Part shown: piece by piece, positions 19,685 to 37,957 of the stretch | Numbering within the stretch: position 1 is the stretch's first letter | How the letters are laid out: every line of letters starts with the position of its first letter | Assembly (NCBI GenBank): GCA_902762785.1 | Contig: CACWPL010000002.1 | Location: forward strand, 62,001 to 126,000 | Direction of reading: 5' to 3' | Length of the DNA: 64,000 nucleotides | Source: an uncultured Ruminococcus sp. | GTDB lineage: Bacteria; Bacillota; Clostridia; Oscillospirales; Ruminococcaceae | Made by a program: the position numbers and the translations under genes | Notes under the pieces: generated by a model | What the model was told of the DNA's origin: nothing | Databases searched by the model: none | What the model saw: only the letters and a program-made list of their open reading frames with translations

Positions 19685-19719
19685 ACGGCGCCTCCCCGCC
19701 CATGGGAGGCGCCGTTCTC
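19685..19719 (+). terminator. Possible terminator between the small membrane protein and the convergent operon
   Basis: ACGGCGCCTCCC (19685-19696) and GGGAGGCGCCGT (19704-19715) form a strong 12-bp stem. The T-tract that follows is weak (TCTCAT), so efficiency is uncertain. It touches the end of the minus-strand operon and may block readthrough into it. Confidence 0.5.
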
Positions 19720-21112
19720 ATAGCTCGATGTGCCGGAGCGTGAGCTGGGGCGTGAGGCGCACCGCCCCCATCCCGAGCGGACGGCCGCGGCCGAGGCGGA
19801 GCGTCTGCGCGGTCATCACGTCTAGGAGACGGTCGAGCGTGGCCTGGTCGAGCTGGTCGAACCAGATCGTGAACGTGAAGGCGTTCGCCTCCCCGGCGGC
19901 CAGCGGGAGGAGGGTGGTGTGCGCAGGCGAGTCCGGCGGCGCGGCGGTCGGACGGTAGACCTTGCGGCCGCGCAGATGCAGTGCCCCCGGCAGCAGCGGC
20001 CGGACGTCCCGCCCGATGCGGTAGGCGTCGTAGCTCCAGCGCTTGGCGGGGAGGTCGGTGCGGGTGTACTGCGCCATCGCACCGGGATGGGGCGCGTGGA
20101 GCGCGATGGGACGCGGCGGCGCATAGACCGGCGCCGTCCCCGCGAACACGCCGTCCGTGACACGGAGCCGGGAGCGAAACGGATGCCCCGCGCTGTCCGT
20201 CATCCCGAAGAGCGCACAGGCCGGGCAGAGCAGCGCACGGTCGGTGCAGGGGGCGAAGGATCCGGCGAAGTCGGCGGGCGTTTGGGTAAGAAGGTCGCGG
20301 CCGATCGCGGCGGGCGAGAGCCGGAGCTGTCCGTCCGGCGCCGTGTCATACCAGACCCCGGCCCAGAGGCCCTCCGGCGCATCGTCCGGGATCCGGCGGC
20401 GGCCATAGGGGACGGCGTACCCTTCGAGGGACGCATGATACGCCCGGAGCACCTCGGCGGGGAGGGGCATTGGGCCTTTTTTGCGGTCCGGCGCGAAAAA
20501 CAGGACACTGCGCCCGTCCGGGACGAGCGTGGTGCGGATCCTGCATGTGTCTGTTCGCTTCTCCGCGAGCGCCGTGACGCGGCTGATGCGCCACCCGTCG
20601 ACGATGTCCGGCCGGAACTGTACATAGAGCCGTGCGCCGTAGCCGTAGGTCCTGCCGCCCATCCGCAGGACGGCGGATCCGTCCTTCTGCGTCACGCGGT
20701 CGGCAGGCACGCCCTCCCCGAAGGAGAGATGATAGACCACCGCCGGCTGCAGCACCCATCCCGCGCCGTCACGCCGGACGATCCCCGGCCGCTTGATCGT
20801 GAGCGACCGGGACGAGCGCGGCGCAGTCAGTCCCGCCAGACAGGAGCCGGTCTCCGCAGCGAAGCGCTCGCGCAGCATCCCCCGCAGGCTCGCCGCCGGG
20901 AGGATGGGGGCCGTCGGCGCGGCCGAGGGGGCAGGGTCGGTGCAGCAGAAGGACTGCACGCGTCCCGGGCAGGTGCGCGGGTCGGGGAGGAAGAGGTCGG
21001 TCAGCGGCACGAGCCGGACGTCGATGCGCCCGGTGCGCGTGCCGGGCTGCGGCGCGGTGCGGCGGCATCCCTCCGGGGGGAGCGGGAGGAAGCCGTAGCC
21101 CGCGGGGGTCAT
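19718..21112 (-). CDS. RAMP protein of type III CRISPR effector (TIGR03986-like)
   Basis: A 464-residue RAMP-superfamily (Cas7-like) protein, the last gene of the operon. It opens with GYGFLPLPPEG and GRIDVRLVPLTDLFLPD (about 28-44), then ILPAASLRGMLRERF (70-84), the IPGSSLRGxLR-type motif. Later come CPACALFGMTDSAGHPFRSR (296-315), with a CxxC and the usual LFG-x-SR segment, and the glycine-rich loop LGRGRPLGMGAVRL near the C-terminus. This order matches the TIGR03986 family found in type III-D loci. It probably forms part of the backbone or cap that holds the crRNA-target duplex. It overlaps the csx19-like gene by 4 bases. Confidence 0.75.
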   Translation of the reverse strand: MTPAGYGFLPLPPEGCRRTAPQPGTRTGRIDVRLVPLTDLFLPDPRTCPGRVQSFCCTDPAPSAAPTAPILPAASLRGMLRERFAAETGSCLAGLTAPRSSRSLTIKRPGIVRRDGAGWVLQPAVVYHLSFGEGVPADRVTQKDGSAVLRMGGRTYGYGARLYVQFRPDIVDGWRISRVTALAEKRTDTCRIRTTLVPDGRSVLFFAPDRKKGPMPLPAEVLRAYHASLEGYAVPYGRRRIPDDAPEGLWAGVWYDTAPDGQLRLSPAAIGRDLLTQTPADFAGSFAPCTDRALLCPACALFGMTDSAGHPFRSRLRVTDGVFAGTAPVYAPPRPIALHAPHPGAMAQYTRTDLPAKRWSYDAYRIGRDVRPLLPGALHLRGRKVYRPTAAPPDSPAHTTLLPLAAGEANAFTFTIWFDQLDQATLDRLLDVMTAQTLRLGRGRPLGMGAVRLTPQLTLRHIEL

Positions 21113-21492
21113 GTGCCGCCTCCCACGCCGAGGATGCGGTATCCGGCCAGATAGACCGCCTCGTCCTCGTCGATGGCGTAGTAGTCGCGGATGATGAGGT
21201 ACGACCGCGTGTCACCGAAGCGCGCGGAGAGGTACATGCGCTCCTCCTCGGCACATTCGTGCGCGATCGTGTCGTCCGTGAGGAGCGACTCGAGATACCG
21301 TCCCCGCGCCTCCGACCAGACAGCACGGTATTCCGTGGTCTCGTCGAAGATGTGGAGCGCCTCGAGCGTGTCCGTCTCCGGCAGCGGGACGTCCCCGCCG
21401 TGCCATGCCTCCAGCAGGACGGTGTGGTGTCCCAGAAGCAGGATATGGCCATGGGACGGCGCTTTTGCGATCAGCTCCAGTTCAGGCATCAT
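21109..21492 (-). CDS. csx19: Csx19-like type III-D CRISPR protein
   Basis: A 127-residue protein. The middle and end follow the pattern of Csx19 (TIGR03984): an Arg/Glu-containing segment EALHIFDETTEYRAVW, a short E-E-R segment, and a final LIIRDYYAIDEDEAVYLAGY, which resembles the Csx19 C-terminal motif with a Tyr followed by acidic residues before YxxxxR. It is shorter than typical Csx19. Csx19 occurs with Csx10 and TIGR03986-type RAMPs in III-D loci, as here. The biochemical role is unknown. The start overlaps the upstream RAMP gene by 11 bases. Confidence 0.55.
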   Translation of the reverse strand: MMPELELIAKAPSHGHILLLGHHTVLLEAWHGGDVPLPETDTLEALHIFDETTEYRAVWSEARGRYLESLLTDDTIAHECAEEERMYLSARFGDTRSYLIIRDYYAIDEDEAVYLAGYRILGVGGGT

Positions 21493-22528
21493 GTGGCAGC
21501 ACCTCCTTGCGCGCGGTCAGGTCGTGGGATGGGGCATCATGGACGGTCCCGGAGAACATACCGCATCCGACGGACGTCTGTCCGCCGACGGCCAGATAGC
21601 CCTCCGTCAGGTCGCGCAGCACGAGCCGCAGGACATCGGCCATCCATCCCGCACAGCGGCGAACGGTCACGGTCAGCACAGTGCGGCCGCCCGTCCAGGT
21701 GGGGCTGCGGTCGACGGGCCCGGCGCTGCCGGTCAGCGGGTCGAGCGGCATGCGCACGAGCTGCCCGGGGACGGCGCCCTCCAGCGGCGTGTCATGGAAA
21801 CGGATGCGCGAGCTGTGCCGGACATCGCCCCAGAGCGCGTCCATCTCCGGGATGCGATCCTCTGCGCCCAGCTCGCGCAGGATGGCCGCCGACCGCTCCC
21901 GGAAGGCACGGCTCCAGACCGTCCCGGGGACACAGGGGGAATCCCCAGCGTAGGCGGTGCGCTGCGTCAGCTCGGCCGTCAGGACGACGGCGTCCGTCTG
22001 CGGGGGCGGCGGGAGGACGATCGTGTCGTAGGTCTCGTCCTCCAAAAATGCGAGATACGCCGCGCCGGTGCCGGGGGCGGCATAGTCGAACACGCGCTCC
22101 CCCGCGCCGCCGTCCCCCATGAGACGACCCGCCCCGCGCGACTTGCGCGCTCCGAGCGAGACCGCCCCCGCCGCCGTCAGCGACAGGAGCTGCCGGACGG
22201 TCTCCCGCGCGGCATCGGCCGGGAGGGCATCGTCCGTAGTAAGGACCAGCGAGAGCCGGAGCGTCCCGGCGGCACCGGCCGGGAGCGGGACGGCAGCGCG
22301 GTCGAGGACGATGTCGGACACGGTCAGGCGGCTCTCGCGGCGGCCGTCCTGTCCGCCAAAGAGACACGCGGCCGTCTCGTCATCGGCGAAAGACGAGAGC
22401 GCCGCACGGAGCGCACCGGCGAGCGCCGTCCCGGGGATGCGCCCGTCGGCGGCATCGAGCAGGACGAGCGCGGTCGTGAGCCGCACCGGCAGACGCCAGA
22501 ACATGCGGCAGCGGATGCGTGCCGGCAT
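21482..22528 (-). CDS. Tandem double-RAMP (Cas7-Cas7 fusion) protein
   Basis: A 348-residue protein with two RAMP units in one chain. Unit 1: RIPGTALAGALRAAL (30-44), then CLFGGQDGRRESRLTVSDIV (55-74) and the Gly-rich loop SLGARKSRGAGRLMG (124-138). Unit 2: CVPGTVWSRAFRERS (199-213), WGDVRHSSRIRFHD (233-246), RMPLDPLTGSAGP (259-271) and the loop VGGQTSVGCGMFSG (314-327). Each unit repeats the Csm3-like order of an IPGT-x-L segment, an LFG/WG-x-SR segment and a Gly-rich loop. It probably supplies two adjacent backbone positions of the effector. Start at ATG 22528 behind AAAGGAGG; the frame is open further upstream. Confidence 0.75.
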   Translation of the reverse strand: MPARIRCRMFWRLPVRLTTALVLLDAADGRIPGTALAGALRAALSSFADDETAACLFGGQDGRRESRLTVSDIVLDRAAVPLPAGAAGTLRLSLVLTTDDALPADAARETVRQLLSLTAAGAVSLGARKSRGAGRLMGDGGAGERVFDYAAPGTGAAYLAFLEDETYDTIVLPPPPQTDAVVLTAELTQRTAYAGDSPCVPGTVWSRAFRERSAAILRELGAEDRIPEMDALWGDVRHSSRIRFHDTPLEGAVPGQLVRMPLDPLTGSAGPVDRSPTWTGGRTVLTVTVRRCAGWMADVLRLVLRDLTEGYLAVGGQTSVGCGMFSGTVHDAPSHDLTARKEVLPHDA

Positions 22529-22562: not shown

Positions 22563-24131
22563 TCAGAGCACGATCCCGAGCGTCTCGGCCGGGAGGATGC
22601 GGAACGTCCCGAAGCCCTCGGCCGTGCGCTCCCCGACGGCACGTCCCTCGAGCGTGCGCGGGTCGACGGGCGCGGATGTCCTTACGAGGAAGACGCTCCC
22701 CGCGGCATAGGCCGCGTGTGCCCAGGCGGGCGTGCCCCAGCTCTGCCGCCATCCCGCGACCGTGCAGCCGCGGACCCAGCGGGCATCGAGCGCCGTCACG
22801 CGCAGGCCGTCCGGGGCGAGGAGCAGGTCGAGGTATTCCCGGAGGACGGCGGGACGGGCGGCGTACATGCCGTTCTCATCGAAGAGGACGGCCGGGGAGA
22901 GGAGCCAGACCGCGAGCAGGTCCGTCATGGGACGCGGCTGCTGCGGCCCCTCGGCATCCAGACGGATCCGGCACTCGCCCAGACCGCCGGTGCGGTAGCG
23001 GCCGCCCGCCGTCAAGAACGTGCGCGGGAGCTGTGCGGCCGCCTCGAGGACGGGGCGGGGGCCGTAGAGATAGCCGATGAAGCGCTGCCCCTCGGCGAGC
23101 GCCTCGTGCGTGACGACCTGCGTCCGGCCGTGGGGACCGCGCTCCCGGCGGGGGAGACGCGTGCGGCGGACGCGGACGAATCGCGGGTCGGAGAATGCCG
23201 CATCCACGGCCAGATGTCCCCCGCGCAGCGCCACGGCCGGCTCCGAGAGCGCCAGACACGCGGGCGTGTCGAGGACGTAGAGCGGCATCCGTCCGTCCTT
23301 GTCGGGGACGGCGCGCTTCGGTGCGGCAAGGCACGCGGGCGGTGTCCATGCGGGACAGTCGCCCAGGGCGACAGCGGCGTCCGTGAAGCGCGCGCCCTGC
23401 TCGCGGAGCGCGTCCGTATCGAGGCCGCAGCGTGCGAGCATCCCGGCGACGGTATGTCCGGGGATCTGCTCGCTGTCCTCGGAGAGCAGGAGCGGCGACC
23501 GCAGCTCGATGGTGATGCGGAGCCGCACGGTGTCCGCGGGGAGCACGGGCGGGGGCGCGGCCGGCTCCGGCGGCACGTCCAACGGCGCACAGCGCACCTC
23601 GCCCATCCCGCGCGTCCGGCCGATCCCGATATGGCGCACGAGCTTGAGACAGTCCTCGAAGAGCGGCACGAGCGCAGGATCGTCGAGCGTGCAGCGGCAG
23701 ACGAAGACCGTCCCCCGCCGGACGGCGCGCATCGTGCGGATGCGGTCGGTCACGCCTGCCTCGTCGAGGGACGCGTTCACGCGGACGACGGTGCCCTCCG
23801 CGCGGCACTGTGCCGGGGTCTTTCCGGCGGCGGCTGCGCGGCGGTCTGCGAGGTCCGCGGGATGGGCGTCGAAGACGGTCAGCGCGGCAGGGACACCGGG
23901 GACGTTGCCGCCCATGCGCGTGCCGAAGAGCCGTGCGACGTCTGCGTCCGCGGCGAGTCCGAGCGTGCAGAGCTCCTCCCCCGCCTCGCGCAGGAGCCCC
24001 TTGAGACGCGTCCCGCGGATGACGGGGATCCCGCGGCTGTCGAACGCGCAGTCCACATCGAAGCCGTCAGACGGCGCCCCGTCCGAGGTACACAGGTCGC
24101 TCAGGAGCGTGATCGTGAAGAACTGCTGCAT
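22563..24131 (-). CDS. csx10: Fused Csm3-like RAMP and Csx10-like protein
   Basis: A 522-residue two-part RAMP protein. Part 1 (1-185) is Csm3-like: DGFDVDCAFDSRGIPVIRGT (22-41) with KGLLREA after it, LFGTR (68-72), and the Gly-rich loop IGIGRTRGMGEVRC (168-181). Part 2 (200-522) resembles Csx10: strand [14 protein letters not shown] (203-216), EALAEGQRFIGYLYG (343-357) and RYRTGGLGECRIR (378-390). Asp25 or Asp27 could match the target-RNA-cleaving Asp of Csm3, but this is inferred. Its ATG lies one base after the cas10-like stop, with GGAGGG inside that gene's end. Csx10 marks subtype III-D. A long open frame continues upstream but lies antiphase to the cas10-like gene. Confidence 0.75.
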   Translation of the reverse strand: MQQFFTITLLSDLCTSDGAPSDGFDVDCAFDSRGIPVIRGTRLKGLLREAGEELCTLGLAADADVARLFGTRMGGNVPGVPAALTVFDAHPADLADRRAAAAGKTPAQCRAEGTVVRVNASLDEAGVTDRIRTMRAVRRGTVFVCRCTLDDPALVPLFEDCLKLVRHIGIGRTRGMGEVRCAPLDVPPEPAAPPPVLPADTVRLRITIELRSPLLLSEDSEQIPGHTVAGMLARCGLDTDALREQGARFTDAAVALGDCPAWTPPACLAAPKRAVPDKDGRMPLYVLDTPACLALSEPAVALRGGHLAVDAAFSDPRFVRVRRTRLPRRERGPHGRTQVVTHEALAEGQRFIGYLYGPRPVLEAAAQLPRTFLTAGGRYRTGGLGECRIRLDAEGPQQPRPMTDLLAVWLLSPAVLFDENGMYAARPAVLREYLDLLLAPDGLRVTALDARWVRGCTVAGWRQSWGTPAWAHAAYAAGSVFLVRTSAPVDPRTLEGRAVGERTAEGFGTFRILPAETLGIVL

Positions 24132-24132: not shown

Positions 24133-25491
24133 TCATCCCTCCTCTCTCGCCTCCCATGCGGCGAGCTCGAGCGCATCGAATCCGATCCCGGGCGGGACGG
24201 GCTTTCCCATGTACATGTCCTGCAAGCGCCGCTGCGCCTGGACACGCGAGAGCGCGGGCGGGGCGGCGTGCATGGCCGCGAGCGCCTGCCGGAAGGCGGC
24301 GAAGTCGTGTTCGGGGTCGCGGTACCATCCGTCGTCCACACAGAAAGGACGCTGCCGCAGACCGGCGCGGACATCGCCCTCGGGCGTGCCGGGACAGATG
24401 TCGAAGCTGAGCCAGCTCCCGGGGATGCCGTGCGGCCCGAGGGACGCGTGCGCGCTGCGCTTGGCCTCGCTGCACAGCGCCTCGGAGAGCGCATAGGCCG
24501 CCGCGAACGGGTAGCGGGTCGTGCAGAAGGCGATCCCCGCGCACGCGGAGATCCGCCAGCGGGCGGCATCGGGCGTCCCCTCCATGCCCCTTCGCATGCA
24601 GCGGCGGGCGACCGACGTGAGGAACGTCTCCGCAAAGTCGAGCGCATAGTCCGCGCGGACGACATAGGTGATGTCGTCCCCCGCCTGGATGAGCGGACAG
24701 AGGACGGGCGTCCCCGGCTCGAGCGCGGCATCCGCCCAGCGTGCGGCCGCAGCCTCGGCCTCCCGGCAGACCGCCGCGAAGCATTCCCGGACCGTGACGG
24801 CAGAGAACCGCGCCTCCGGGCTGCCGCAGGCCGGGTCACGCAGGATGGCCGCGATCCGGGCACCCATGCTGTTGCCGTCGATGTGGACGACGGCGAGACG
24901 GCCGTGCGCGGCGTAGCGGCCGAGGCGCTCGATGTTCGGCGCCTCGCGCAGGAGCATCCGCTTGCGGCGGGACTCCTCGGTGAGGGGCGTGCCGTTCGCA
25001 TCGTACCACGCGATGGCCTCGCCGGTGACGCCGTCACGCAGACAGACGGGCGGCAGTCCCGCATGGACGAGGGGCATGGTGCGCGCCTTGCGGGCGGCGA
25101 GGCGCTGCTGGAGACGTTCGTCCACCGCGGCAAGGTCATCGCCGTCCTCATACGCCAGCCACGCATAGACGAGCTGGAGGGAGCGCGTTTTTTGCAGGAT
25201 GTAGACGGCCATCGCACGGCTGATGCGGCGTGCGGCCGCCTCGTCGGAGAAGCGCACCACGGCATTGCCGCCGGCCTTGTCGAGCACGCGGATGCCCTGT
25301 CCGGCCAGGAACGCCGCCTCACTGTAACGCACGTCAGCCGGAGCATCCGAGGGTGCTCCGGCAGCATGCAGCAGTGCGCGGTAGATGATCTTTTCGGGCA
25401 GATCCTGGACGGCCGTGATCTCGCGCAGACGCTGTGTCCGAAAGACATAGGCCTGGATCCCTCGGACGTCATAGCGTGCCAGGACGCTCAT
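24133..25491 (-). CDS. cas10: Cas10-like protein without HD domain (two palm domains)
   Basis: A 452-residue protein that begins directly at the first palm domain: YDVRGIQAYVFRTQRLREIT (7-26), then AVQDLPEKI, the Cas10/Cmr2 DxxGIQxYxF motif. The second palm has VVHIDGNSMGARI (201-213), matching the usual DGDxMG, and PLIQAGDDITYVV (266-278), matching the GGDD nucleotidyl-cyclase motif with Gly changed to Ala. The N-terminal HD nuclease is absent, and the zinc-finger region between the palms keeps only one Cys. Retained Asp residues leave cyclic oligoadenylate synthesis possible; this is inferred. The gene overlaps the 986-residue gene by 4 bases. Confidence 0.8.
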   Translation of the reverse strand: MSVLARYDVRGIQAYVFRTQRLREITAVQDLPEKIIYRALLHAAGAPSDAPADVRYSEAAFLAGQGIRVLDKAGGNAVVRFSDEAAARRISRAMAVYILQKTRSLQLVYAWLAYEDGDDLAAVDERLQQRLAARKARTMPLVHAGLPPVCLRDGVTGEAIAWYDANGTPLTEESRRKRMLLREAPNIERLGRYAAHGRLAVVHIDGNSMGARIAAILRDPACGSPEARFSAVTVRECFAAVCREAEAAAARWADAALEPGTPVLCPLIQAGDDITYVVRADYALDFAETFLTSVARRCMRRGMEGTPDAARWRISACAGIAFCTTRYPFAAAYALSEALCSEAKRSAHASLGPHGIPGSWLSFDICPGTPEGDVRAGLRQRPFCVDDGWYRDPEHDFAAFRQALAAMHAAPPALSRVQAQRRLQDMYMGKPVPPGIGFDALELAAWEAREEG

Positions 25492-28448
25492 GCGCCCTTC
25501 TCCTTGGAGGGCTTGCTCTGGCCGAAACGGTCGTATTTTTCGAGGATGGCCTGGCCGAGCAGGTCGACGGCCATGGGCACGCTGTCATCGTAATGATGCG
25601 CTTCATGCTGTGCGCCCTCGCTCGTAGGAAGATCTCGTATCTCGTCCGGGACCTTGAGCGGATCCGTTTTCAGCAGATCGAGTCTATGGGGGAGAAGGTT
25701 GAACAAGCGGATGAGGTAGTTGCGGTACTGCTCCTTCTTGGAGGAGAAGTTGTTTTTCTTCAGCTCCTTGAACTTGCCGCCATGGAAGCGCGGCCCGCTC
25801 ATGTATTCGCGCAGGACATACCACTGCATCCAGAAGGCACAGGGCAGCTCGGCGAGCGCAGGATCCTTGATCTTGCTGAGAGCGAAGCTGCCGCGCTTGC
25901 GGTAGCCGAACGCCACGCTCTCCGGGATGGTGAGATACTCGTTCTCATCGAGCTCGCAGTCGGTATAGAAATTGACGAACTGCCCGTCGATGATATCCTC
26001 GTAGAGCGCCGCTTTGGACTCGAGCTCCAGATAGGGACGGACCCTCTTGGCGAGCTCCATCCGGGCGGCCTTGTTGCTGTACTCGCCCAGGATGCTGCCG
26101 TCCGCGAGCTCGGCGACGTCGACGGTGAAGAAGCGGGGGAAGAAGTCGTGCTTGGTCGAACTGGCTGCCGTACAGGCACGGATGACGATCATCACCTCAC
26201 ACAGATAGTCGAGCGAAGTGAGCACCGCCCACCAGAGCTCGGCCTGACGGTCTCCCTCGATGCGGCGCATCGCCTGCTCATAGGTGTCGGTATTCGTGTC
26301 GGCGATGTCGACGCCGGAGCGCTCCTTCTGCTCCTCGAGCGAGCCGACCCGCTGGGACTTGGGCGCGAAGGAGCTGAGCTTGGCGTACACGCAGGCGGTC
26401 TTGTTCCTGGACGGATCGAGCGCGTTCTTGCGGTCGACCGAGGCCCTCATATAACGATGGTCATACTCCACGCGGAAATAGGCGATGAAACGGTACGGAC
26501 AGGACGGCGTGTACCCGGAGAAGCCCTTGAGCTCCGGTGCCCGGAACGTGTCCCCTTCGGGGAAGGGGGCGCCGGCGATCTTCGCCTGGGCGGCGGTCTG
26601 CACGGTCACGAACAGGTCGATGACCTCCGCGATGCCCTGCTCGCTGGCGGGGTCGTAGAAGCAGGCGTTCGTCTTGTCGTAGTAGCGCTCGAGCCCCTTG
26701 ACGTACTTGGTCATCGTGTCGATCAGGTCCGCACGGGCCTCGTCAAAGGACGGCATCCCGATGTTGTCGAGCATCGTCTCGAACTTCGAGTCCATCGAGA
26801 GATAGAGATGGCTCTCGTCGGCGTTCGGGTCGTTCCTGCGGCGGAGCTCCCTGCGGGCGATGAAGTAGGCGGTGATGAACTCGCCGCGGTAGGGCTCGAA
26901 TCGCTTGAACGCATCGCCGATGCAGGAGATCTTCTCGTCGGCATGGGGCGCATTGGGGTCGTCCGCGCGCATGAGGTGGTAGATCGCGTGGTGGCAGCGA
27001 TTCCGACAGATGACGTCCTCGGTCCGGCAGCTCAGGCGTGCGAGCGCGTTGATGGCCCAGTTGGCGTAGAACGTCCCCTTCTCCTCGAGCTGTGCGTAGC
27101 GCTCCCGGAGCTGTGTCTGCTGCTGGGGGAACCGCGCGGCGTTCTTCCAGAAGCGCGTGCGGAGGGCGCGGGAGAGGTCCTTCCAGAAGGTATCGTCGTC
27201 GCTCCCGGCGGCATCGGCGGAGAGCGCCTTGGCGGACAGGAGACCGTCCTGCATCTCGTCCTCCTCGGGCTCGGCCGGTGCGGGCTCGGGCGTCTCCGAG
27301 TCCAGATCCATCTGGTCGGAGGCCATGCTCTCGCCGTCATCGAAGGCATCGGGATCGAACGACGGGGCACTGTCGTCCTTGTCCTGCTTGGTCTCTTGAT
27401 AGGAATAGGAGACGCTGCTGATCTTGGCGAGCCGCTCCAGGAACGAGGGGTCCTCGCGCAGCACCTCGCGTCCCGTCAGCCGCTGGAGATACCAGAAGAT
27501 CTCCTCGCACTGTGCGAGAGACGCTTCCTCCGGCAGCGAGGCGGCATACTGCTGTAGGAGCGCTTCGTTGAGGTAGTCGGAGAAGGGCATCGGATCGGTG
27601 CCGGACGCATAGGCCTTGGCAAGGGCGGTGAAGTCGGCGGAGACGGTGCTGCTCGGAGCATCGGCATAGGTCTTGTAGCCGAAATACTTCTTGTCGATGC
27701 GCAGGGAGACGAGCGCGAGATAGAGGAACCATTCGGAGGGGCATCCCCGGCTCAGCCTGCTGCCGGCGGCCGCCGTCCTGCGGAACGCCGCACCGATCGC
27801 ATCGAGGCGGCCGTCGTCCTCGAACTGGGTGCGGGCGGTGTCATCATAGCGATGGCCGGTGTTCTTTTTGAGGAAGACGGGGAGAGACACATCGTCGGTG
27901 CTGCCGGCGTAGCGGTCGGCCATCTCCAGGAGATACGGCCGCAGCTGTGCCATTTTTTTCCCGGCATACATCCGGTAGCCGCTCACACCGTACTCGATCC
28001 GCAGCCACACGATCGCGAGGTACAGCGCTGTCTCACGAACGCACGCCGTGCGGGGCGTCTTCCCGGCAGAGACGGCAGCGCGGAACGTCTGCCCGATCGT
28101 CTCGAGGACCGCATCCTCCTCCTCGAGCCGCCAGGTGCTGCTGCGGCCGGCCAGCTCCTCGGCAAGGAAGGCAGAGAAGGACACCGGGGCGGTGTCGGCA
28201 GCGTAGACGACAGCGAGGGCACGAAGGGTCGGCAGGATGTGATCTGCCAGACTCCGTCCGCTGAGCGTGCCGTAGCCGGGACTCTGGGCCTTGATCCGGG
28301 ACTGGACGATCGTGAGATAGGCTTTCCAGTCGTCCGGCGCCTCGTTCTCGAGATCGAGGGAGGCAGAGCGGCGGAACGCTTCACCGATCTGGTCGAGCCG
28401 ACGGTCCTCGTCGCCGGACGCGGCGGAAGGTGTGGGTATCTTGGCCAT
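25488..28448 (-). CDS. Large protein of unknown family in the type III-D-like operon
   Basis: A 986-residue protein I do not recognise. Residues 16-98, 110-196 and 210-298 are three diverged repeats with the pattern L-x-x-IG-x-x-FRR, then YL-x-(I/V)-x-x-RI, GY-x-x-Y, YA-x-x-T and a closing F-x-x-(Y/F)L. Residues 352-415 are an acidic, proline-containing linker. Residues 476-552 hold EKISCIGDAFKRFEPYRGEF and AYFIARRELRRR, which recall sigma region 2 and echo the repeat motif IG-x-AF-(R/K)R. RNRCHH at 482-487 satisfies the HEPN pattern RxxxxH, but only once. The rest is mostly helical. It sits between the CARF-like and cas10-like genes and overlaps cas10 by 4 bases, so it is made with the effector. 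Candidate roles are an effector, a target or a scaffold. Confidence 0.7.
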   Translation of the reverse strand: MAKIPTPSAASGDEDRRLDQIGEAFRRSASLDLENEAPDDWKAYLTIVQSRIKAQSPGYGTLSGRSLADHILPTLRALAVVYAADTAPVSFSAFLAEELAGRSSTWRLEEEDAVLETIGQTFRAAVSAGKTPRTACVRETALYLAIVWLRIEYGVSGYRMYAGKKMAQLRPYLLEMADRYAGSTDDVSLPVFLKKNTGHRYDDTARTQFEDDGRLDAIGAAFRRTAAAGSRLSRGCPSEWFLYLALVSLRIDKKYFGYKTYADAPSSTVSADFTALAKAYASGTDPMPFSDYLNEALLQQYAASLPEEASLAQCEEIFWYLQRLTGREVLREDPSFLERLAKISSVSYSYQETKQDKDDSAPSFDPDAFDDGESMASDQMDLDSETPEPAPAEPEEDEMQDGLLSAKALSADAAGSDDDTFWKDLSRALRTRFWKNAARFPQQQTQLRERYAQLEEKGTFYANWAINALARLSCRTEDVICRNRCHHAIYHLMRADDPNAPHADEKISCIGDAFKRFEPYRGEFITAYFIARRELRRRNDPNADESHLYLSMDSKFETMLDNIGMPSFDEARADLIDTMTKYVKGLERYYDKTNACFYDPASEQGIAEVIDLFVTVQTAAQAKIAGAPFPEGDTFRAPELKGFSGYTPSCPYRFIAYFRVEYDHRYMRASVDRKNALDPSRNKTACVYAKLSSFAPKSQRVGSLEEQKERSGVDIADTNTDTYEQAMRRIEGDRQAELWWAVLTSLDYLCEVMIVIRACTAASSTKHDFFPRFFTVDVAELADGSILGEYSNKAARMELAKRVRPYLELESKAALYEDIIDGQFVNFYTDCELDENEYLTIPESVAFGYRKRGSFALSKIKDPALAELPCAFWMQWYVLREYMSGPRFHGGKFKELKKNNFSSKKEQYRNYLIRLFNLLPHRLDLLKTDPLKVPDEIRDLPTSEGAQHEAHHYDDSVPMAVDLLGQAILEKYDRFGQSKPSKEKGA

Positions 28449-28482
28449 GGGGAACTCTCCTTTGCGTTAGCTTAACAGTGCG

Positions 28483-29241
28483 TCATGCCTCGTCTATCGT
28501 GGATTCGATGAGGTCGAGCAGGGTGCCGATGGAACGGATGCTGAGGCCCTCGGCATGGTGGAGGGCATTGTCCAGATGGATGAGGTAGCTCAGGTCCTGG
28601 AGCTTTTGCCGCTCCGCGCCCGGGAGATACTGGGAATAGGTCACGGTCTTGACGACAGTGGTGTCCTGGACATTGTTGGCATAGCGGAAGATCATCTGCA
28701 TGAGGACGGTGAGCACGCGGATGCCGAAAGAGACGTCGGCATAGACCTCGACGATGCCGCCTGCCTCGCCGGGGACCATGGCATCGAGCAGCGCACGCAT
28801 GAGGGCGATGCTGTTCGCGGGGGTCTCCTCGCGGGGCGCGAAGATGATCTCGAGGTCGTAGGCGGCGGTCTTGTCTGCGTTGCCCTTGCAGAAGAAGGAA
28901 TCGAGCTCCTTCATGAAGCGGACGAAGTTCTCCTGCGTATCGGCGGTCACGAGGCGGTCGGGGCGGACAGTGCCCTTCTCGTCGATGAACGGCGCGATCT
29001 GGGTCTCGTCGTTGGACACGGCGTCCGCGTCCTCGGTGGTGACGATCAGCGAGATCCCGACCCGCTCCCCCGGCGCGACGGCATTGTAGAGGGGCAGCAT
29101 GATGGGGGAGATGACGCCCCGATCGCTGCCGTCAGCGGCCTTCGGCTGGGCGAGCGCGGGGTCCTCACTGGTATTGATGAACAGCTTTGCCTTGAGCTTA
29201 TCGGGGGTGTTCGTGGAGATGCTGGCGATGAAACGCTTCAT
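28483..29241 (-). CDS. CARF-like protein (TM1812/Csx2-type), no effector domain
   Basis: A 252-residue protein, first gene of the operon. Residues 165-204 (EVYADVSFGIRVLTVLMQMI, then VVKTVTYSQ) fit the TM1812/Csx2 CARF pattern of an acidic strand, a D-x-THGFR-like turn (here ADVSFGIR), a long hydrophobic helix and a strand ending in a Tyr. The next segment KLQDLSYLIHLDNALHHAEG matches the DLT-x-x-x-x-LxxW-x-x-A stretch after CARF in that family. The chain ends there, so no HEPN or nuclease domain follows. It may sense cyclic oligoadenylate for a partner or degrade it. The start is ATG 29241 behind GGAAAGGAA; the frame opens upstream without a ribosome site. Confidence 0.55.
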   Translation of the reverse strand: MKRFIASISTNTPDKLKAKLFINTSEDPALAQPKAADGSDRGVISPIMLPLYNAVAPGERVGISLIVTTEDADAVSNDETQIAPFIDEKGTVRPDRLVTADTQENFVRFMKELDSFFCKGNADKTAAYDLEIIFAPREETPANSIALMRALLDAMVPGEAGGIVEVYADVSFGIRVLTVLMQMIFRYANNVQDTTVVKTVTYSQYLPGAERQKLQDLSYLIHLDNALHHAEGLSIRSIGTLLDLIESTIDEA

Positions 29242-29316: not shown

Positions 29317-29345
29317 ATTATACACGATTTGTGCGGATCTGTCAA
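29317..29345 (-). promoter_or_regulatory. Consensus promoter of the type III-D-like operon
   Basis: On the minus strand TTGACA (29345-29340) and TATAAT (29322-29317) are exactly 17 bases apart. The predicted leader is about 70 bases. A perfect sigma-70 promoter suggests constitutive or repressor-controlled expression. Confidence 0.92.
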
Positions 29346-30132: not shown

Positions 30133-30161
30133 TTGACGATCGGGCGGGGACGTGCTATAAT
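30133..30161 (+). promoter_or_regulatory. Promoter of the WYL regulator gene
   Basis: TTGACG (30133-30138) and TATAAT (30156-30161) are 17 bases apart. Confidence 0.88.
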
Positions 30162-30211: not shown

Positions 30212-31234
30212 ATGGCAGACGAACAGAAGGACAGCATCCAGGCCGAGAAGACGGCCGACCCCCGCCTCAAGATCATGTATCTCTACCAGATCCTCATGAC
30301 CGAGACGGACGAGGACCACATCCTCACCATGCCCCAGATCATCGCAAAGCTCGAGGAACGCGGCATCAAGGCCTCGCGCAAGGCGCTCTATCAGGACATC
30401 AAGGCGCTCCAGCAGTTCGGCGTCGACATCGACGGCGGGCGCGGGGCGAATTCCGGCTACCGCGTGCTGAGCCGCGACTTTCAGCTCCCCGAGCTCAAGC
30501 TCCTCGCGGACGCCGTCAGCGCGGCACGGTTCCTCACGAAGAAGAAATCCGAGGAGCTGCTCGCCAAGATCGGCACGCTCGCGAGCGTCCACGAGGCCAA
30601 GGACCTGCGCCGTATCCACGTCAGCGAGAGCTACAAGGGCTTCAATGAGCGCATCTACCTGAGCATGGACGAGATCTCCCGCGCCATCTCCGCGGGGCGG
30701 CAGATCACCTTCAAGTATTTCCGCTACGACCGCCACAAAAAGAAGGACTATGGCGACGGCGAACGCGTCTGCTCGCCCATCGCCCTGACCTGGAGCGAGG
30801 AGCGCTACTATCTGGTCGCCTACTACGAGAAGTACCACGAGATCGCCAATTTCCGCGTCGACCGCATGGAGAACGTCCGCATGCGCGAGGAGAAGGCGGT
30901 CGAACCGCCCAAGGGCTTCAAGCTCGCGCGGTACCTCAGCGAGTCCTTCTCGATGTTCAGCGGCGCGACCACCGAGGTCACGCTCCGCTTCACCAATGAC
31001 CTCGTGAACGCCGTCATCGACCGCTTCGGGACGGATGTCCCCATCCTGCCCGAGGGGGAGGGACATTTCAACATCCATGTCCACGTCAAGGCCGAAAAGC
31101 CCTTCTTCGGGTGGATCTTCGGCTTCGGCGGCAATGCTGAGATCATCTCCCCGCCCATCGTGCGGGAGACCTACCGCGATACCCTTGCCGAGGTGCTCGC
31201 GCTCCACCAGGGCGAGCCGGAGAGCATGATATGA
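30212..31234 (+). CDS. WYL domain transcriptional regulator (HTH-WYL-WCX)
   Basis: A 340-residue regulator. An N-terminal winged helix (about residues 22-85; MPQIIAKLEERGIKASRKAL, then YQDIKALQQFGVDI) precedes a WYL ligand-binding domain (about 145-230; EISRAISAGRQITFKYF, SPIALTWSEERYYLVAYYEK, FRVDRMENV) and a C-terminal WCX-like segment. WYL domains can sense nucleic acid or nucleotide ligands and often regulate defence loci. This one points away from the CRISPR-type operon and has its own promoter and palindrome, so a regulatory link is possible but not shown. It overlaps the next gene by 4 bases. Confidence 0.9.
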   Translation: MADEQKDSIQAEKTADPRLKIMYLYQILMTETDEDHILTMPQIIAKLEERGIKASRKALYQDIKALQQFGVDIDGGRGANSGYRVLSRDFQLPELKLLADAVSAARFLTKKKSEELLAKIGTLASVHEAKDLRRIHVSESYKGFNERIYLSMDEISRAISAGRQITFKYFRYDRHKKKDYGDGERVCSPIALTWSEERYYLVAYYEKYHEIANFRVDRMENVRMREEKAVEPPKGFKLARYLSESFSMFSGATTEVTLRFTNDLVNAVIDRFGTDVPILPEGEGHFNIHVHVKAEKPFFGWIFGFGGNAEIISPPIVRETYRDTLAEVLALHQGEPESMI

Positions 31235-31767: not shown

Positions 31768-33114
31768 ATGAAAAGAGAACTTCGGATCATGGCAGCGGCC
31801 ACGGCAGCAGCGGCGATGCTGGCTGCGCTCCCGGCGCTCCCGCTCGCAGCGGCGCTCACGGGCGACGTGGACGGGGACGGCGCGGTCGGCGTGACGGACG
31901 TCATCGCGCTGAACAAGTATCTCCTCGGCGTCGGCACGCTGACGGCGGCGGAGAATGCGGATGTCTATGCAGACGGCACGGTCGACGTGCTCGACCTTGG
32001 GATGCTCAAGCGCCTCGTGACGGCAGAGACGGCTGCGCCGGTCTATATCCATATGAACGACACCGGCATCGTCATCGAGGGCGATGATGCGTCTGTCGTC
32101 AAGGCGGACGGCCTGACCGCGACGATCACGGCCTCCGGCATCTACTACATCGACGGCACCGTCACGGACGGTCAGATCATCGTCTCGACCGCGGCGGCCG
32201 ACATCGAGGATGTCGAGCTCGTCCTGGACGGCGTGACGTTCACGAACAGCACCCGTCAGGCCATCTACACCACCGACACGAACGGCAGCGACAAGACCAA
32301 GCTGACCCTCCTCGGGGACAACGTCATCACCGACGTCTCCACGACGGCCTATACCACGGGCGCCGCGGCGGTCTACACGAACAACAAGCTCACCGTCGCC
32401 CGCAGCTCCACCGGCACGCTGACGATCAGCAGCTATATGAACGACGGCATCCACAGCGAGAAGAAGCTGAGCCTCAACGGCGGCACGATCACCATCGACA
32501 CCGACACCGCCCCAGCGGACGGCTCTGTGATCCCGTCGGCGGACGGCATCACGTCCGATAAGGCCATCGAGATCGAGGGCGGCGCGCTGGATCTGGACAC
32601 CTCCGGCGACGGCATCAAGACCGACAGCACCGTGACCGTCACGGACGGCACCGTGTCGATCAAGGCCGGCAACGATGCCCTCCAGGCGGGCACGTCCATC
32701 GCCGTGAGCGGCGGCTATGTGACCGCCAGCGGTGACCGCGGCCTGCGCCTCACGGGCGATGCGGCCGGGAACGCGGGGAGCCTCGCGATCACTGGCGGCA
32801 CGCTGATCGCCACGGCCACGGACTACCAGTTCGACGGCAATGAGGCGGTCGACACCTCCCTGACCACGCAGGCGGCCATGGCCTTCGACCTGGCAGCGGA
32901 GTGGAAAAAAGCGAGCCTCATCGGCATCGGCGGCACGGACTATGCGTCCCGCAAGAAATATGACTATGTCCTGATCTCGTCCCCGGCCATCGCTTCGGAC
33001 GGCAGCTATGCCGTCACGATCGGCGGTGCGGCGGCGTCCCACGAGGGCGGCGACGTGTTCCAGAACACGGGCGCGGTCACCTATTACAAGACCGTCACCG
33101 CCGCAGCGCAGTGA
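31768..33114 (+). CDS. Exported dockerin protein with Cthe_2159-like carbohydrate-binding domain
   Basis: A 448-residue secreted protein. A signal peptide (about 1-29, ending ALPLAAA) is followed directly by a type I dockerin (about 30-88; GDVDGDGAVGVTDVIALNKY, then YADGTVDVLDLGMLKRL). A long beta-helix-like domain follows, with repeating segments such as DDASVVKADGLTATITASGI, LVLDGVTFTNSTRQAIYT, SYMNDGIHSEKKLSLNGG and TSGDGIKTDSTVTVTDG. The latter resembles the Cthe_2159 carbohydrate-binding family (DUF4353). The dockerin is N-terminal, a less common place. The second calcium loop has Tyr where Asn or Asp is usual. It would attach to a cohesin on a cell-surface scaffold. Confidence 0.85.
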   Translation: MKRELRIMAAATAAAAMLAALPALPLAAALTGDVDGDGAVGVTDVIALNKYLLGVGTLTAAENADVYADGTVDVLDLGMLKRLVTAETAAPVYIHMNDTGIVIEGDDASVVKADGLTATITASGIYYIDGTVTDGQIIVSTAAADIEDVELVLDGVTFTNSTRQAIYTTDTNGSDKTKLTLLGDNVITDVSTTAYTTGAAAVYTNNKLTVARSSTGTLTISSYMNDGIHSEKKLSLNGGTITIDTDTAPADGSVIPSADGITSDKAIEIEGGALDLDTSGDGIKTDSTVTVTDGTVSIKAGNDALQAGTSIAVSGGYVTASGDRGLRLTGDAAGNAGSLAITGGTLIATATDYQFDGNEAVDTSLTTQAAMAFDLAAEWKKASLIGIGGTDYASRKKYDYVLISSPAIASDGSYAVTIGGAAASHEGGDVFQNTGAVTYYKTVTAAAQ

Positions 33115-33160
33115 CCTGAAAGAGCCTTCTTCATCTAAATGATTCCTTATCCATACAGCT

Positions 33161-33200
33161 CGCCGCGGCATCCGAAAAGGGTGCCGCGGCGGGCTGATTC
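33161..33200 (+). terminator. Stem-loop after the carbohydrate-binding dockerin gene
   Basis: CGCCGCGGCATCC and GGGTGCCGCGGCG form a 13-bp stem. Only a weak T-poor tail (GGCTGATTCC) follows, so it may be an inefficient terminator or a stability element. Confidence 0.4.
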
Positions 33201-33251
33201 CGCTTGGCGAAACTACACAAAAGTTGAACAAAAAAACGGTTTAAATGACCG

Positions 33252-33280
33252 TTGAATGACGACGCGAGATGTGGTATGAT
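33252..33280 (+). promoter_or_regulatory. Promoter of the second dockerin gene
   Basis: TTGAAT (33252-33257) and TATGAT (33275-33280) are 17 bases apart, about 50 bases upstream of the start. Confidence 0.7.
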
Positions 33281-33334
33281 ATAGATAGAGGGTATCCGCA
33301 AAGGCATCCCATATCCCTGAAAGGAGGGTCTTGT

Positions 33335-34174
33335 ATGAAACATATCACAGCAAGGATGGCTGCCGTGCTCTGCGCGATGGCAGCGATGAGCCCGATGGCG
33401 GCGCAGGCGCAGACGCCGCTCGCACGATATGTTCGCAGCGCACCGCCGCTGACGGTCGAGACGGAGGCGTTCCGTTACAGCTATCAGACCGATGCGCCGA
33501 TGGCGGACATCCCACAGGATCTGGAGCTGATGACCATTTGGAAACGGTATGTCTACGGCGAACACCGCAGCTTCACCACGGATCAGATCGACGCGACCCA
33601 TGTCGTGACCGGGATCTTTGAGGTGGCCGAGACGGGTGCAAAGATCTATATCCTCATGGATGTGAACAGCGATCGTGCCGATCAGCGCCCTTACTATATG
33701 CGAGGCGCCGAATTGCAGCGCTACCTGGAGGATACGCCGCTCGAGCTCGGCGACCTGCTCCGCATCGACGCGATGCTGGCGATCACAGAGGACATCCCCG
33801 GGGAGATGTTCTTCTTTGACGAGGCGGATGTCAAGAGCGTTGCGGTCGTTGGAAATGCGTTCGACTGCTTCGGCGAGGCTTATCTTCCGGTCGCACAGCA
33901 GGAATATGCACTCGCGGCGAACTATGTGACGAATCTTCAGTACGGTCCGACTGACATGACGCAGATCGGGGCGGAGCGTGTGGTCGGGCAGCGCGGCGAT
34001 GTGAGCGGTGACAGCACCTGCGGCGTCACGGACGTGATCGCGCTCACGCAGGTCATCCATGGGACGCGCCAGCTCGAGAGCATCGGTGCCCGGCTCGCCG
34101 CAGACATGAACGGCGACGGCGTCCTCGACAGCTTCGACCTTGCGCTCCTCAAGCGCGCCGTGCTCGGTGGATAA
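33335..34174 (+). CDS. Exported dockerin-containing protein of unknown function
   Basis: A 279-residue secreted protein with a signal peptide (about 1-27, ending SPMAAQAQ), a ~180-residue domain I do not recognise, and a C-terminal type I dockerin (about 219-279). The first calcium loop (GDVSGDSTCGVTDVIAL) has lost the glycine of DGDG; the second (ADMNGDGVLDSFDLALLKR) is intact. Start at ATG 33335 behind AAAGGAGGG; an upstream in-frame start at 33269 would overlap the promoter. It probably docks to a cell-surface scaffold. No catalytic residues of a glycoside hydrolase are seen. Confidence 0.82.
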   Translation: MKHITARMAAVLCAMAAMSPMAAQAQTPLARYVRSAPPLTVETEAFRYSYQTDAPMADIPQDLELMTIWKRYVYGEHRSFTTDQIDATHVVTGIFEVAETGAKIYILMDVNSDRADQRPYYMRGAELQRYLEDTPLELGDLLRIDAMLAITEDIPGEMFFFDEADVKSVAVVGNAFDCFGEAYLPVAQQEYALAANYVTNLQYGPTDMTQIGAERVVGQRGDVSGDSTCGVTDVIALTQVIHGTRQLESIGARLAADMNGDGVLDSFDLALLKRAVLGG

Positions 34175-36956: not shown

Positions 36957-37112
36957 ATGAAGTACGTCTGTGACGCCTGTGGCTGGGAGTACGACGAGGA
37001 GCTGGGCGATCCGGAGAACGGCATCGCGCCCGGCACCAAGTTCGAGGACCTGCCGGAGGACTTCGAGTGCCCGCTCTGCGGCGTCGGCAAGGACATGTTC
37101 TCCGAGGCCTGA
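36957..37112 (+). CDS. Rubredoxin
   Basis: A 51-residue rubredoxin with both cysteine pairs for the single iron: [10 protein letters not shown] near the start and [11 protein letters not shown] near the end, with the typical [20 protein letters not shown] spacing. It carries electrons in anaerobes, often to oxygen- and peroxide-reducing enzymes. ATG 36957 follows AAGGAGG; the frame is open from 36885 but that part has no ribosome site. Confidence 0.95.
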
Positions 37113-37121
37113 CACAGCCAA

Positions 37122-37158
37122 ACAGACCCACGCAAAACGCGTGGGTCTGTCGTTTTTC
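37122..37158 (+). terminator. Terminator after rubredoxin
   Basis: ACAGACCCACGC and GCGTGGGTCTGT form a 12-bp stem with a 5-base loop, followed by CGTTTTTC. The convergent rnfB gene ends at its edge. Confidence 0.9.
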
Positions 37159-37944
37159 TCAATGCAGATGCGTGATCGCCTTGGTCGGGCAGACGGTGGT
37201 GCAGACGCCGCAGCCGGTGCATTTGGCATAGTCGATGACGGCGTGGAAGTCCTGGACGGTGACGGCACCGTTCGGGCATTTCTTCTCGCACATCCGGCAT
37301 CCGATGCATCCGGCCGAGCAAGCGAGCTTGGTCGCACGCCCATTGTCCGCGGAGCTGCACCGCACGGCGACGGTGTTCTCGAGCGGCCGCAGCGAGAGCA
37401 GTCCGTTCGGGCAGGCCTTGGCGCATCTGCCGCACGCGATACAGCGGTCGGGCAGGACACGCGCGAGACCGTCCCGGATGCAGATGGCCTTCTCGTCGCA
37501 GACGCGGGCACAGTCGCCGAGGCCGATGCATCCGAAATGGCACGCGCCCGTGCCGCCGTAGCTGGCCTTGGCCGCGGCACAGGTCGCGATGCCGTCATAG
37601 GCGTAGAGCGTCTGCGTCACATGACAGTCGCCCGCACAGTGGACGGCCATGACCATCGGCACGGAGGACACCTCGCGTCCCAGGATGGCGCCGAGCTTCT
37701 GCGCGGTCGCCGCGCCGCCGGGACGGCAGAGGTCCGGCTCGGCCCGTCCCTGCGCGATGGCCTCGGCATAGTCGGCACATCCCGCAAAGCCGCAGCCGCC
37801 GCAGTTCGCACCGGGCAGCGCCTCGGTCAGACGCTCCTGCGTGGGGTCGGTCTTGACGGCGAACACCCGCGACGCCACCGTCAGCAGGATGCCCGCGAGC
37901 AGGCCCATCCCTGCGAAGAGCAAGATCGGTATCAAAATATCCAT
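37159..37944 (-). CDS. rnfB: Rnf complex ferredoxin subunit RnfB
   Basis: A 261-residue iron-sulfur subunit anchored by an N-terminal helix (ILIPILLFAGMGLLAGILL). The Rnf-specific four-Cys cluster site CGGCGFAGCADYAEAI with a later CRPGG is followed by several CxxCxxCxxxCP ferredoxin motifs (CIACGRCAKACP, CIGCRMCEKKCP, CTGCGVCTTVCP). It is the usual electron entry point from ferredoxin into the complex and the last gene of the operon. Confidence 0.95.
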   Translation of the reverse strand: MDILIPILLFAGMGLLAGILLTVASRVFAVKTDPTQERLTEALPGANCGGCGFAGCADYAEAIAQGRAEPDLCRPGGAATAQKLGAILGREVSSVPMVMAVHCAGDCHVTQTLYAYDGIATCAAAKASYGGTGACHFGCIGLGDCARVCDEKAICIRDGLARVLPDRCIACGRCAKACPNGLLSLRPLENTVAVRCSSADNGRATKLACSAGCIGCRMCEKKCPNGAVTVQDFHAVIDYAKCTGCGVCTTVCPTKAITHLH

Positions 37945-37957
37945 TCCCAGGCCTCCC

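What the first reader, a model, noticed from the sequence alone, without database searches (positions are those of the whole stretch)
25488..28448. 986-residue protein of unknown family with three N-terminal repeats inside the CRISPR operon
Three ~90-residue repeats (residues 16-98, 110-196, 210-298) share L-x-x-IG-x-x-FRR, YL-x-x-x-x-RI, GY-x-x-Y and a closing F-x-x-(Y/F)L. An acidic linker and a ~570-residue helical part follow. It is one of the longest proteins in the window and is translationally coupled to the Cas10-like gene, so it is probably a dedicated effector, scaffold or regulator of the system.
Basis: partly seen in the sequence, partly recalled or inferred. Interest (0 to 1): 0.85.

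Follow-up and report, generated by a model that had tools for sequence, protein, structure and literature searches.

The report
Giant sigma-like partner of CRISPR CARF
A very large unfamiliar protein in a bacterial CRISPR gene cluster appears to be an overgrown relative of a sigma-factor-like transcription protein that related gut bacteria keep beside the sensor for the CRISPR alarm molecule, which suggests that this immune system may answer invasion by switching genes on.

Summary
The ORF and its three N-terminal repeats are real. The operon is a type III-D effector module with no CRISPR array in the window: CARF, the 986-aa protein P0001, Cas10d, Cas7-Cas5, Cas7, Csx19, Cas7. P0001 has no significant HMM match. 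In related III-D loci the slot beside a ~200-aa CARF is held by a 277-383-aa protein that is a divergent sigma-70-type factor: 14 distinct CARF-partner loci are known here; a profile of 11 partners, run on 38 genomes of the genus, hit three partners and eight other proteins, all eight sigma-70 factors; one member hits TIGR02937 sigma70-ECF at 1.6e-6. P0001's only relative, P0006, shares the partner's C-terminal domain; P0001 alone does not reach significance and is tied in through P0006. Best reading: P0001 is an enlarged, fast-evolving member of a CARF-sigma pair that turns the cyclic-oligoadenylate signal into transcription, without the protease of CalpL/CalpT/CalpS or Craspase. The partner's sigma kinship is well supported, P0001's place fairly, the mechanism is inferred.

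The parts
29317..29345 (-). Consensus housekeeping promoter upstream of the operon (TTGACA-17-TATAAT, 12 of 12)
   Evidence: consensus match only, not a functional test
28483..29241 (-). Stand-alone CARF protein, 252 aa from the ATG at 29241
   Evidence: best match PADLOC CARF2--CARF E 1.1e-13 (run on the longer frame P0003); no Pfam or NCBIfam match; 36% identical to the CARF of the sister locus
25488..28448 (-). P0001, 986 aa: the finding; enlarged relative of the CARF-adjacent sigma-like partner
27537..28412 (-). Three N-terminal repeats of about 90-100 residues (residues 13-102, 106-205, 206-304)
   Evidence: z 14-22 against shuffles
27189..27533 (-). Acidic linker, residues 306-420
   Evidence: 32 acidic against 8 basic residues
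26853..26927 (-). Segment like sigma region 2, residues 508-532 (SCIGDAFKRFEPYRGEFITAYFIAR)
   Evidence: region-2 subprofile of the partner family against P0001+P0006: score 19.6, 150 shuffles at most 15.8; a sigma-only profile picks the same place but is exceeded by shuffles
25707..26168 (-). C-terminal domain shared with the CARF-adjacent sigma-like partner, residues 761-914
   Evidence: hhalign of partners against P0001+P0006: 42.2, 50 shuffles at most 21.4; P0006 alone 43.8 against 21.8; P0001 alone 22.6 against 26.6, same place but not significant
24133..25491 (-). Cas10d, 452 aa, palm motifs IDGN and AGDD with both Asp; no HD model matched
   Evidence: PADLOC Cas10d E 3.4e-59; motif comparison with 19 relatives; Pfam lists only palm2, 26.7 bits, just under its cut-off of 27
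22563..24131 (-). Cas7-Cas5 fusion of type III-D (Csx10-like C-terminus)
   Evidence: PADLOC Cas5_IIId E 2.2e-54; TIGR02674 Csx10 E 1.2e-10, below its cut-off
21482..22528 (-). Cas7 of type III-D
   Evidence: PADLOC Cas7_IIId E 3.1e-32
21109..21492 (-). Csx19 (small subunit of III-D)
   Evidence: PADLOC Csx19 E 2.4e-14; NCBIfam Csx19 E 0.0028, below its cut-off
19718..21112 (-). TIGR03986-type Cas7 of III-D
   Evidence: TIGR03986 E 3.1e-31, below its cut-off; PADLOC Cas7_IIId E 5.3e-51

Best explanation
P0001 is a greatly enlarged, fast-diverging member of a CARF-adjacent family of sigma-70-like proteins in type III-D CRISPR systems. Proposed working: the III-D complex meets target RNA; its Cas10d, for which no HD nuclease was matched, makes cyclic oligoadenylate; the stand-alone CARF protein encoded next to P0001 binds that messenger; CARF binding frees, or switches on, its sigma-like partner, which recruits RNA polymerase to defence promoters. 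Shown here by computation: the operon, the CARF, the kept Cas10 polymerase motif, the partner family being sigma-70-like, the homology of P0006's C-terminal domain to that partner (and of P0001 to P0006), and the same position beside CARF. Inferred: that CARF and P0001 touch each other, the sign of the control, that P0001 still works as a sigma factor, and that the N-terminal repeats and acidic linker are add-on regulatory or docking parts.
For: Position: CARF - P0001-type - Cas10d in both known cases, window and G021, the slot that the sigma-like partner holds elsewhere. CARF-partner linkage: 11 loci fetched by a CARF profile (4 of them the profile's own source contigs) have the partner directly downstream in 11 of 11; 2 of 2 loci then found by the partner profile alone (L114, L115) have the CARF directly upstream, as does L035. 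Partner is sigma-like: the 11-member profile in 38 genus genomes gave 11 hits, three partners (one of them a profile member) and eight others, all 8 above Pfam's Sigma70_r2 cut-off; top 4 of 8 PDB sequence hits are sigma factors, best E 0.026, and top 5 of 19 with another member set, best E 0.024; L078 alone: TIGR02937 sigma70-ECF 1.6e-6 with 12 of 13 listed families sigma factors, PHROG 1740 sigma factor 1.7e-5; hhalign to the own genome's sigma factors 31.6 against at most 14.6 in 50 shuffles. P0001 link: partner HMM finds P0006 at 2.3e-5 among 442 ORFs, no shuffle near it; profile comparison with P0001+P0006 42.2 against at most 21.4; region-2-like segment. Genus: all 4 genomes of 38 with a Cas10d match have a P0001-type or partner protein, the 34 others none. 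CARF and partner distances correlate more (r 0.83) than CARF and Cas10d (0.36) in 8 loci. III-D seldom has an HD domain and is thought to act mainly through the messenger (PMC11229360, passages).
Against: P0001 alone does not reach significance by either test: HMM E 2.5 with 15 shuffles scoring as high, hhalign 22.6 against shuffles up to 26.6; the partner profile A6 at E up to 0.01 found neither P0001 in G000 nor P0006 in G021. The link runs through P0006, and weaker builds of the profile comparison exist (E 0.0016, probability 16%; E 0.0024, probability 12%). The clear homology is in the C-terminal domain, which resembles sigma region 4 only weakly (15.1 against at most 13.6 in 80 shuffles); region 2 is clear in the partners but marginal in P0001. 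Most partners alone match no sigma model. Known sigma factors are smaller (recall). No structure could be predicted. The window's CARF departs from the other CARFs at TYG.KP and YG...H, so messenger binding is uncertain. The N-terminal third has no known relation. Not every short CARF has this partner: in L081 an unrelated 642-aa gene follows, in L046 a 312-aa gene that the profile does not reach. No direct evidence for CARF-P0001 binding.
Confidence: 0.5

Rival explanations
1. P0001 descends from the sigma-like partner but no longer works as a sigma factor: it kept the C-terminal domain that docks onto CARF and acts as another kind of CARF-gated effector or as a decoy, with the repeats as its working part.
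For: Region 2 is marginal and the C-terminal domain is the conserved part; much of the protein is new sequence; repeat number differs, three in P0001 and one in P0006.
Against: No catalytic or toxin family matches; the region-2-like segment is kept between P0001 and P0006 (z 11).
Confidence: 0.27
2. P0001 is a structural subunit or scaffold of the III-D complex itself, for example replacing a missing part.
For: Translational coupling to Cas10d; no array in the window and no PF10040-type Cas6 found in the genome.
Against: The usual III-D subunits are already matched in the operon; most Cas10d-bearing genomes lack it; the partner gene sits with CARF, and in six of the 14 loci no Cas10 was found in the fetched stretch (L071, L076, L077, L079, L080, L115), though three of these stretches are under 8 kb.
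Confidence: 0.1
3. The CARF-sigma pair controls the system's own genes (autoregulation of cas genes or array) rather than a separate antiviral response.
For: Co-directional placement with cas genes; ECF sigma factors often regulate their own expression (stated in PMC10028731, passages).
Against: The operon has a perfect housekeeping promoter, and similar ones precede the CARF gene in L029, L071, L072 and L035 (read by eye), so a special sigma is not needed for its expression. In L071 the pair is directly followed by defence-type genes.
Confidence: 0.1

Closest known systems
CARF-adjacent sigma-like partner of type III-D loci in Ruminococcus/Oscillospiraceae/Clostridia MAGs (named here; L070-L080 and others)
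   Same: Gene position beside a stand-alone CARF and, in several loci, before Cas10d; C-terminal domain homologous through P0006; region-2-like segment
   Different: P0001 is about three times longer, has three N-terminal repeats and an acidic linker, and its region 2 is marginal
CalpL-CalpT-CalpS (type III CRISPR Lon protease, anti-sigma, sigma)
   Same: Type III signal that ends in a sigma factor (PMC12751052 and PMC11229360, passages seen)
   Different: Sensor is SAVED fused to a Lon protease that cuts the anti-sigma; here a CARF, with no protease or anti-sigma model listed for the operon genes
Craspase / CASP-sigma of type III-E (Csx29, Csx30, CASP-sigma)
   Same: CRISPR-controlled sigma factor (PMC10028731, passages seen)
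   Different: RNA-triggered protease with Cas7-11 that cuts the inhibitor Csx30; CASP-sigma is a clear ECF factor by the paper's HHpred, P0001 matches no sigma model
Csa3 and other CARF-HTH transcription factors
   Same: CARF-controlled transcription (PMC8699464, start of abstract in a listing only)
   Different: Sensor and DNA-binding part in one protein, no sigma relation

Membership tests
Sigma-70 family (for P0001) | Region 2 (core binding, -10 recognition) | tested here: inconclusive
   Partner region-2 profile at 508-532 above all 150 shuffles with P0001+P0006, sigma-only profile not; no Pfam or NCBIfam match
Sigma-70 family (for P0001) | Region 4 helix-turn-helix at the C-terminus | tested here: inconclusive
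   C-terminal domain homologous to the partner's through P0006, which aligns to region 4 in register but weakly
Sigma-70 family (for the CARF-adjacent partner) | Region 2 | tested here: met
   below the curated cut-offs and only some members match alone, so a divergent branch
Sigma-70 family | Binds RNA polymerase core and directs it to promoters | not testable with these tools
   needs experiment
CARF-adjacent sigma-like partner family (for P0001) | Encoded directly next to a stand-alone CARF | tested here: met
CARF-adjacent sigma-like partner family (for P0001) | Homologous sequence | tested here: met
   met for P0006 and for P0001+P0006 as a profile; P0001 by itself is not significant
Type III-D CRISPR effector module | Cas10d, Csx10-type Cas5, several Cas7, Csx19 | tested here: met
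   PADLOC matches; the NCBIfam matches are below their cut-offs
Type III-D CRISPR effector module | CRISPR array and Cas6 with the effector genes | tested here: not met
   No array in the window or in L029, L111, L112; no PF10040 Cas6 match in G000 at E up to 1, genome about 92% complete, other Cas6 models not searched; arrays lie beside cas1 on contigs C19 and C6
CalpL-CalpT-CalpS | SAVED-Lon protease and cleavable anti-sigma | tested here: not met
   None among the listed PADLOC, Pfam or NCBIfam matches of the seven operon genes
CARF effectors (Csm6/Csx1) | HEPN nuclease fused to the CARF | tested here: not met
   CARF gene is 252 aa from its ATG; the best matches are CARF-only models, matches to CARF-HEPN models lie in their N-terminal half

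The most novel reading that the evidence does not exclude
A protease-free CRISPR-to-transcription switch: a CARF sensor directly controls a sigma factor, and in this lineage the sigma factor has grown into a nearly 1000-residue protein with repeat modules, run by an array-less III-D complex that borrows guide RNAs from other CRISPR arrays in the cell.
Probability: 0.3. Interest if true: 0.85.

Novelty: new variant of a known kind. Interest (0 to 1): 0.7.

Why it matters
Two type III routes to a sigma factor were found in the papers seen, and both use a protease. A CARF next to a sigma-like protein, in 14 distinct loci here, would be a third and simpler route, testable at once by binding assays with cyclic oligoadenylates. 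It would give a role to an unnamed gene beside the CARF of III-D systems in gut Ruminococcus relatives, and P0001 shows how far such a factor can diverge. Seven paper searches showed no description of a CARF-sigma pair in the titles, abstract starts and passages that I saw; most subscription papers are not in that library.

Tried and rejected
Direct family search of P0001 in Pfam, NCBIfam, PADLOC and PHROGs gave nothing above noise; PDB sequence search with P0001+P0006 gave nothing. tblastn in phages and plasmids: no match; partner in plasmids: no match. IMG/VR scans with P0001 (alone and aligned with P0006), P0006, CARF and partner: no relatives; these scans use a few peptide patterns and are not exhaustive. 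The order-level hit L003 (E 0.004) lies among ordinary housekeeping genes, judged by eye, and was dropped as chance. The 642-aa gene between CARF and Cas10d in L081 was considered as another large version and rejected: no detectable relation. N-terminal repeats as copies of region 2: no signal. PDB search with the CARF profile gave only chance matches. A shuffle control for the C-terminal domain crashed and was repeated with 80 shuffles. Searches used query files that by my mistake held several proteins joined behind P0001 and P0006; one search repeats the comparison with clean files.

Full report
Observation. The 986-aa ORF at 25488-28448 on the minus strand is present as described. It follows a CARF gene after 34 nt (28449-28482) and its stop codon overlaps the start of the Cas10-like gene by four bases. 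The three N-terminal repeats are real: z-scores of 14 to 22 against 500 shuffles each, none reaching the observed values. The linker after them is acidic. Whether the rest is helical was not tested.

The operon. HMM scans identify the seven co-directional genes from 29241 down to 19718 as a stand-alone CARF protein, P0001, Cas10d, a Cas7-Cas5 fusion with a Csx10-like end, a Cas7, Csx19 and a TIGR03986-type Cas7, that is, a type III-D effector module; the PADLOC matches are strong, the NCBIfam ones below their cut-offs. Cas10d is short (452 aa); no HD model matched, and it keeps IDGN and AGDD with both aspartates. AGDD also occurs in L029, L028, L033, L036 and L038, 5 of the 19 relatives compared. 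A perfect consensus promoter (12 of 12) lies upstream of the CARF gene. My repeat script found no CRISPR array in the window, in two further 20-kb stretches of the same contig, or in the sister locus. Cas1 matches lie only on contigs C19 and C6, beside arrays of 15 and at least 4 repeats. No Cas6 of model PF10040 was found in the genome at E up to 1 (genome about 92% complete; other Cas6 models were not searched; the control genomes rang over the cut-off in only 2 of 14). So if this module is guided, its guides are probably made elsewhere.

Distribution of P0001. Among 150 genomes (our own and relatives) only our own and G021 (same genus) had it (E 5e-44, 29% identity over residues 204-926). 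An even sample of 396 genomes of the family gave only our own, and of 394 of the order our own plus one chance match. The relative P0006 (802 aa) has the same neighbours, CARF before and Cas10d after, and a single repeat most like R3 (z 11). Cas10d itself is wider: with P0008 as query, 4 of 38 genomes of the genus and 18 of 396 of the family.

What holds that slot elsewhere. I fetched the surroundings of 19 Cas10d matches and saw that several carry a ~200-aa CARF followed by a ~300-aa unnamed gene. A scan of genome contigs with a profile of four such CARFs (two peptide patterns, so not exhaustive) returned 11 loci, four of them the contigs that the profile came from (contig lengths); 11 of 11 have such a gene directly downstream. 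L035 from the Cas10d set, and L032/L114 and L115 from a later search with the partner profile, also have the CARF directly upstream, which makes 14 distinct loci. L031, L039, L040, L042 and L045 are the same contigs as L078, L075, L073, L070 and L072 and are not counted twice. Short CARFs without a matched partner also occur: L081 (followed by an unrelated 642-aa gene) and L046 (followed by a 312-aa gene that the partner profile does not reach, E 3.6); a CARF frame at the edge of L038 was cut by my stretch and not examined. Of the 14 loci, 8 have Cas10d on the same stretch, 3 have it elsewhere in the genome and 3 show none in their assemblies.

The partner is sigma-70-like. (a) Profile against profile of the own genome's sigma factors: 31.6, 50 shuffles at most 14.6. 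That sigma set holds 22 rows: the seed from the window and one frame for each of 21 of the 23 Sigma70_r2 places of the genome, two frames over 300 aa being left out; two rows are the same protein and the seed is part of a third. (b) The 11-member profile against 38 genus genomes: 11 hits at E up to 0.01, three partners (1e-89 to 1e-46, the best one a member of the profile) and eight others (6.5e-6 to 0.009), all eight sigma-70 factors above Pfam's Sigma70_r2 cut-off. The same search found neither P0001 in G000 nor P0006 in G021. (c) Against the PDB: the best four of eight matches are sigma factors, best E 0.026; with another set of eight members the best five of 19, best E 0.024, 12 of the other 14 being insulin-degrading enzymes at E 0.3 or more. 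(d) Single member L078: TIGR02937 sigma70-ECF E 1.6e-6, with 12 of 13 listed families sigma factors, seven of them SigI, and PHROG 1740 sigma factor E 1.7e-5. L115 and L077 have one weak match each, both sigma models; L114, L079 and L075 have none, and Pfam at E up to 10 gave no sigma match for five members. So this is a divergent branch, with region 2 clear and region 4 only suggestive (15.1 against at most 13.6 in 80 shuffles, in the right register).

How P0001 belongs to it. The partner HMM finds P0006 among 442 ORFs at E 2.3e-5 (18.7 bits); shuffled P0006 never exceeds 6.8 bits (1000 made, 787 reported by the program). Profile comparison gives P0006 alone 43.8 (50 shuffles at most 21.8) and P0001+P0006 42.2 (at most 21.4), at P0001 762-915 (similar). 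P0001 alone is not significant: HMM E 2.5 with 15 shuffles as high, hhalign 22.6 at the same place but shuffles up to 26.6. With two more members in the partner profile the joint score is 33.6, E 0.0024, and with a differently aligned set 34.5, E 0.0016. P0001 is joined to the family through P0006: a profile of the partners plus P0006 finds P0001 at 1.5e-7 (25.7 bits, shuffles at most 5.9, 635 of 1000 reported), which mostly reflects its kinship with P0006. A region-2-like segment at 508-532 exceeds all 150 shuffles with the partner's region-2 profile; the sigma-only profile chooses the same place but is exceeded by shuffles (17.4 against up to 25.6). The repeats are unrelated to either.

Co-occurrence. 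In the genus, Cas10d (query P0008) is in G000, G008, G021 and G023; the partner is in G008, G021, G023 and the P0001 type in G000, G021 (that all 38 genus genomes were I infer from the handle numbers). So 4 of 4 Cas10d genomes have one or the other and 0 of 34 others do. G021 has both kinds, each near its own III-D locus. Distances between CARFs and partners of 8 loci correlate at 0.83, CARF and Cas10d at 0.36, partner and Cas10d at 0.61.

Mechanism. An HD domain is rarest in type III-D (3%), which is taken to mean that III-D works mainly through the messenger; that survey left out Cas10 proteins under 500 residues, such as ours (PMC11229360, passages seen). CalpL cuts an anti-sigma to free CalpS on binding cA4 (PMC12751052, passages seen), and the Cas7-11-Csx29 complex cuts Csx30, which inhibits CASP-sigma (PMC10028731, passages seen). 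Here no protease model was listed for the operon genes, so the simplest proposal is that CARF itself holds or activates the sigma-like partner and the messenger changes that. In L071 the pair is followed after 3 nt by a 526-aa gene with a partial MkoA match (6.7e-10), a kinase and a helicase with a strong MkoA match; in L080 a protein with a kinase match below Pfam's cut-off and a VWA protein lie near. This fits control of defence genes but may only reflect defence islands. The window's CARF departs from the others at TYG.KP and YG...H, so its ligand may differ. That the repeats and linker of P0001 are docking or inhibitory parts is a guess.

Limits. All function is inferred. Motif names for CARF and Cas10 come from recall; the reading of the C19 and C6 loci beyond Cas1 (Pfam) is by eye.

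Noticed in passing
L071 8001-16365: CARF-sigma pair directly upstream of a 526-aa protein, a protein kinase and an MkoA-like helicase; no Cas10 was found in that assembly. Possibly a CARF-sigma pair serving a non-CRISPR defence operon.
   Followed up: partly
L081 8083-12447: In G1030 a short CARF is followed by a 642-aa protein and then Cas10d; the 642-aa protein is not detectably related to P0001 or to the partner.
   Followed up: partly
L046 15709-17278: A CARF (213 aa) plus 312-aa gene pair downstream of a III-D operon; the 312-aa protein looks like a divergent partner by eye but the profile does not reach it.
   Followed up: partly
L075 5405-7174: 589-aa protein between a CARF-HEPN effector and the CARF-sigma pair without any PADLOC match at E up to 0.001.
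   Followed up: no
window 30212-31234: WYL-type regulator (by eye) divergent from the operon, behind a strong promoter match at 30133-30161; the sister locus L029 has a rubredoxin-like gene before the CARF instead (read by eye).
   Followed up: no
window 14110-14661: Ordinary ECF sigma factor (L091) about 5 kb beyond the operon's end; among 442 ORFs it was the second best match of the partner HMM after P0006, E 0.31, not significant.
   Followed up: partly
window 31768-34174: Two proteins with dockerin-like motifs, and Rnf-complex-like genes at about 37000-42000 (read by eye), fitting a Ruminococcus-like host.
   Followed up: no
L032 11788-15510: A 1240-aa protein with an ATPase-like segment (by eye) next to a 355-aa protein upstream of a III-D operon that has the CARF-sigma pair on the other side.
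   Followed up: no
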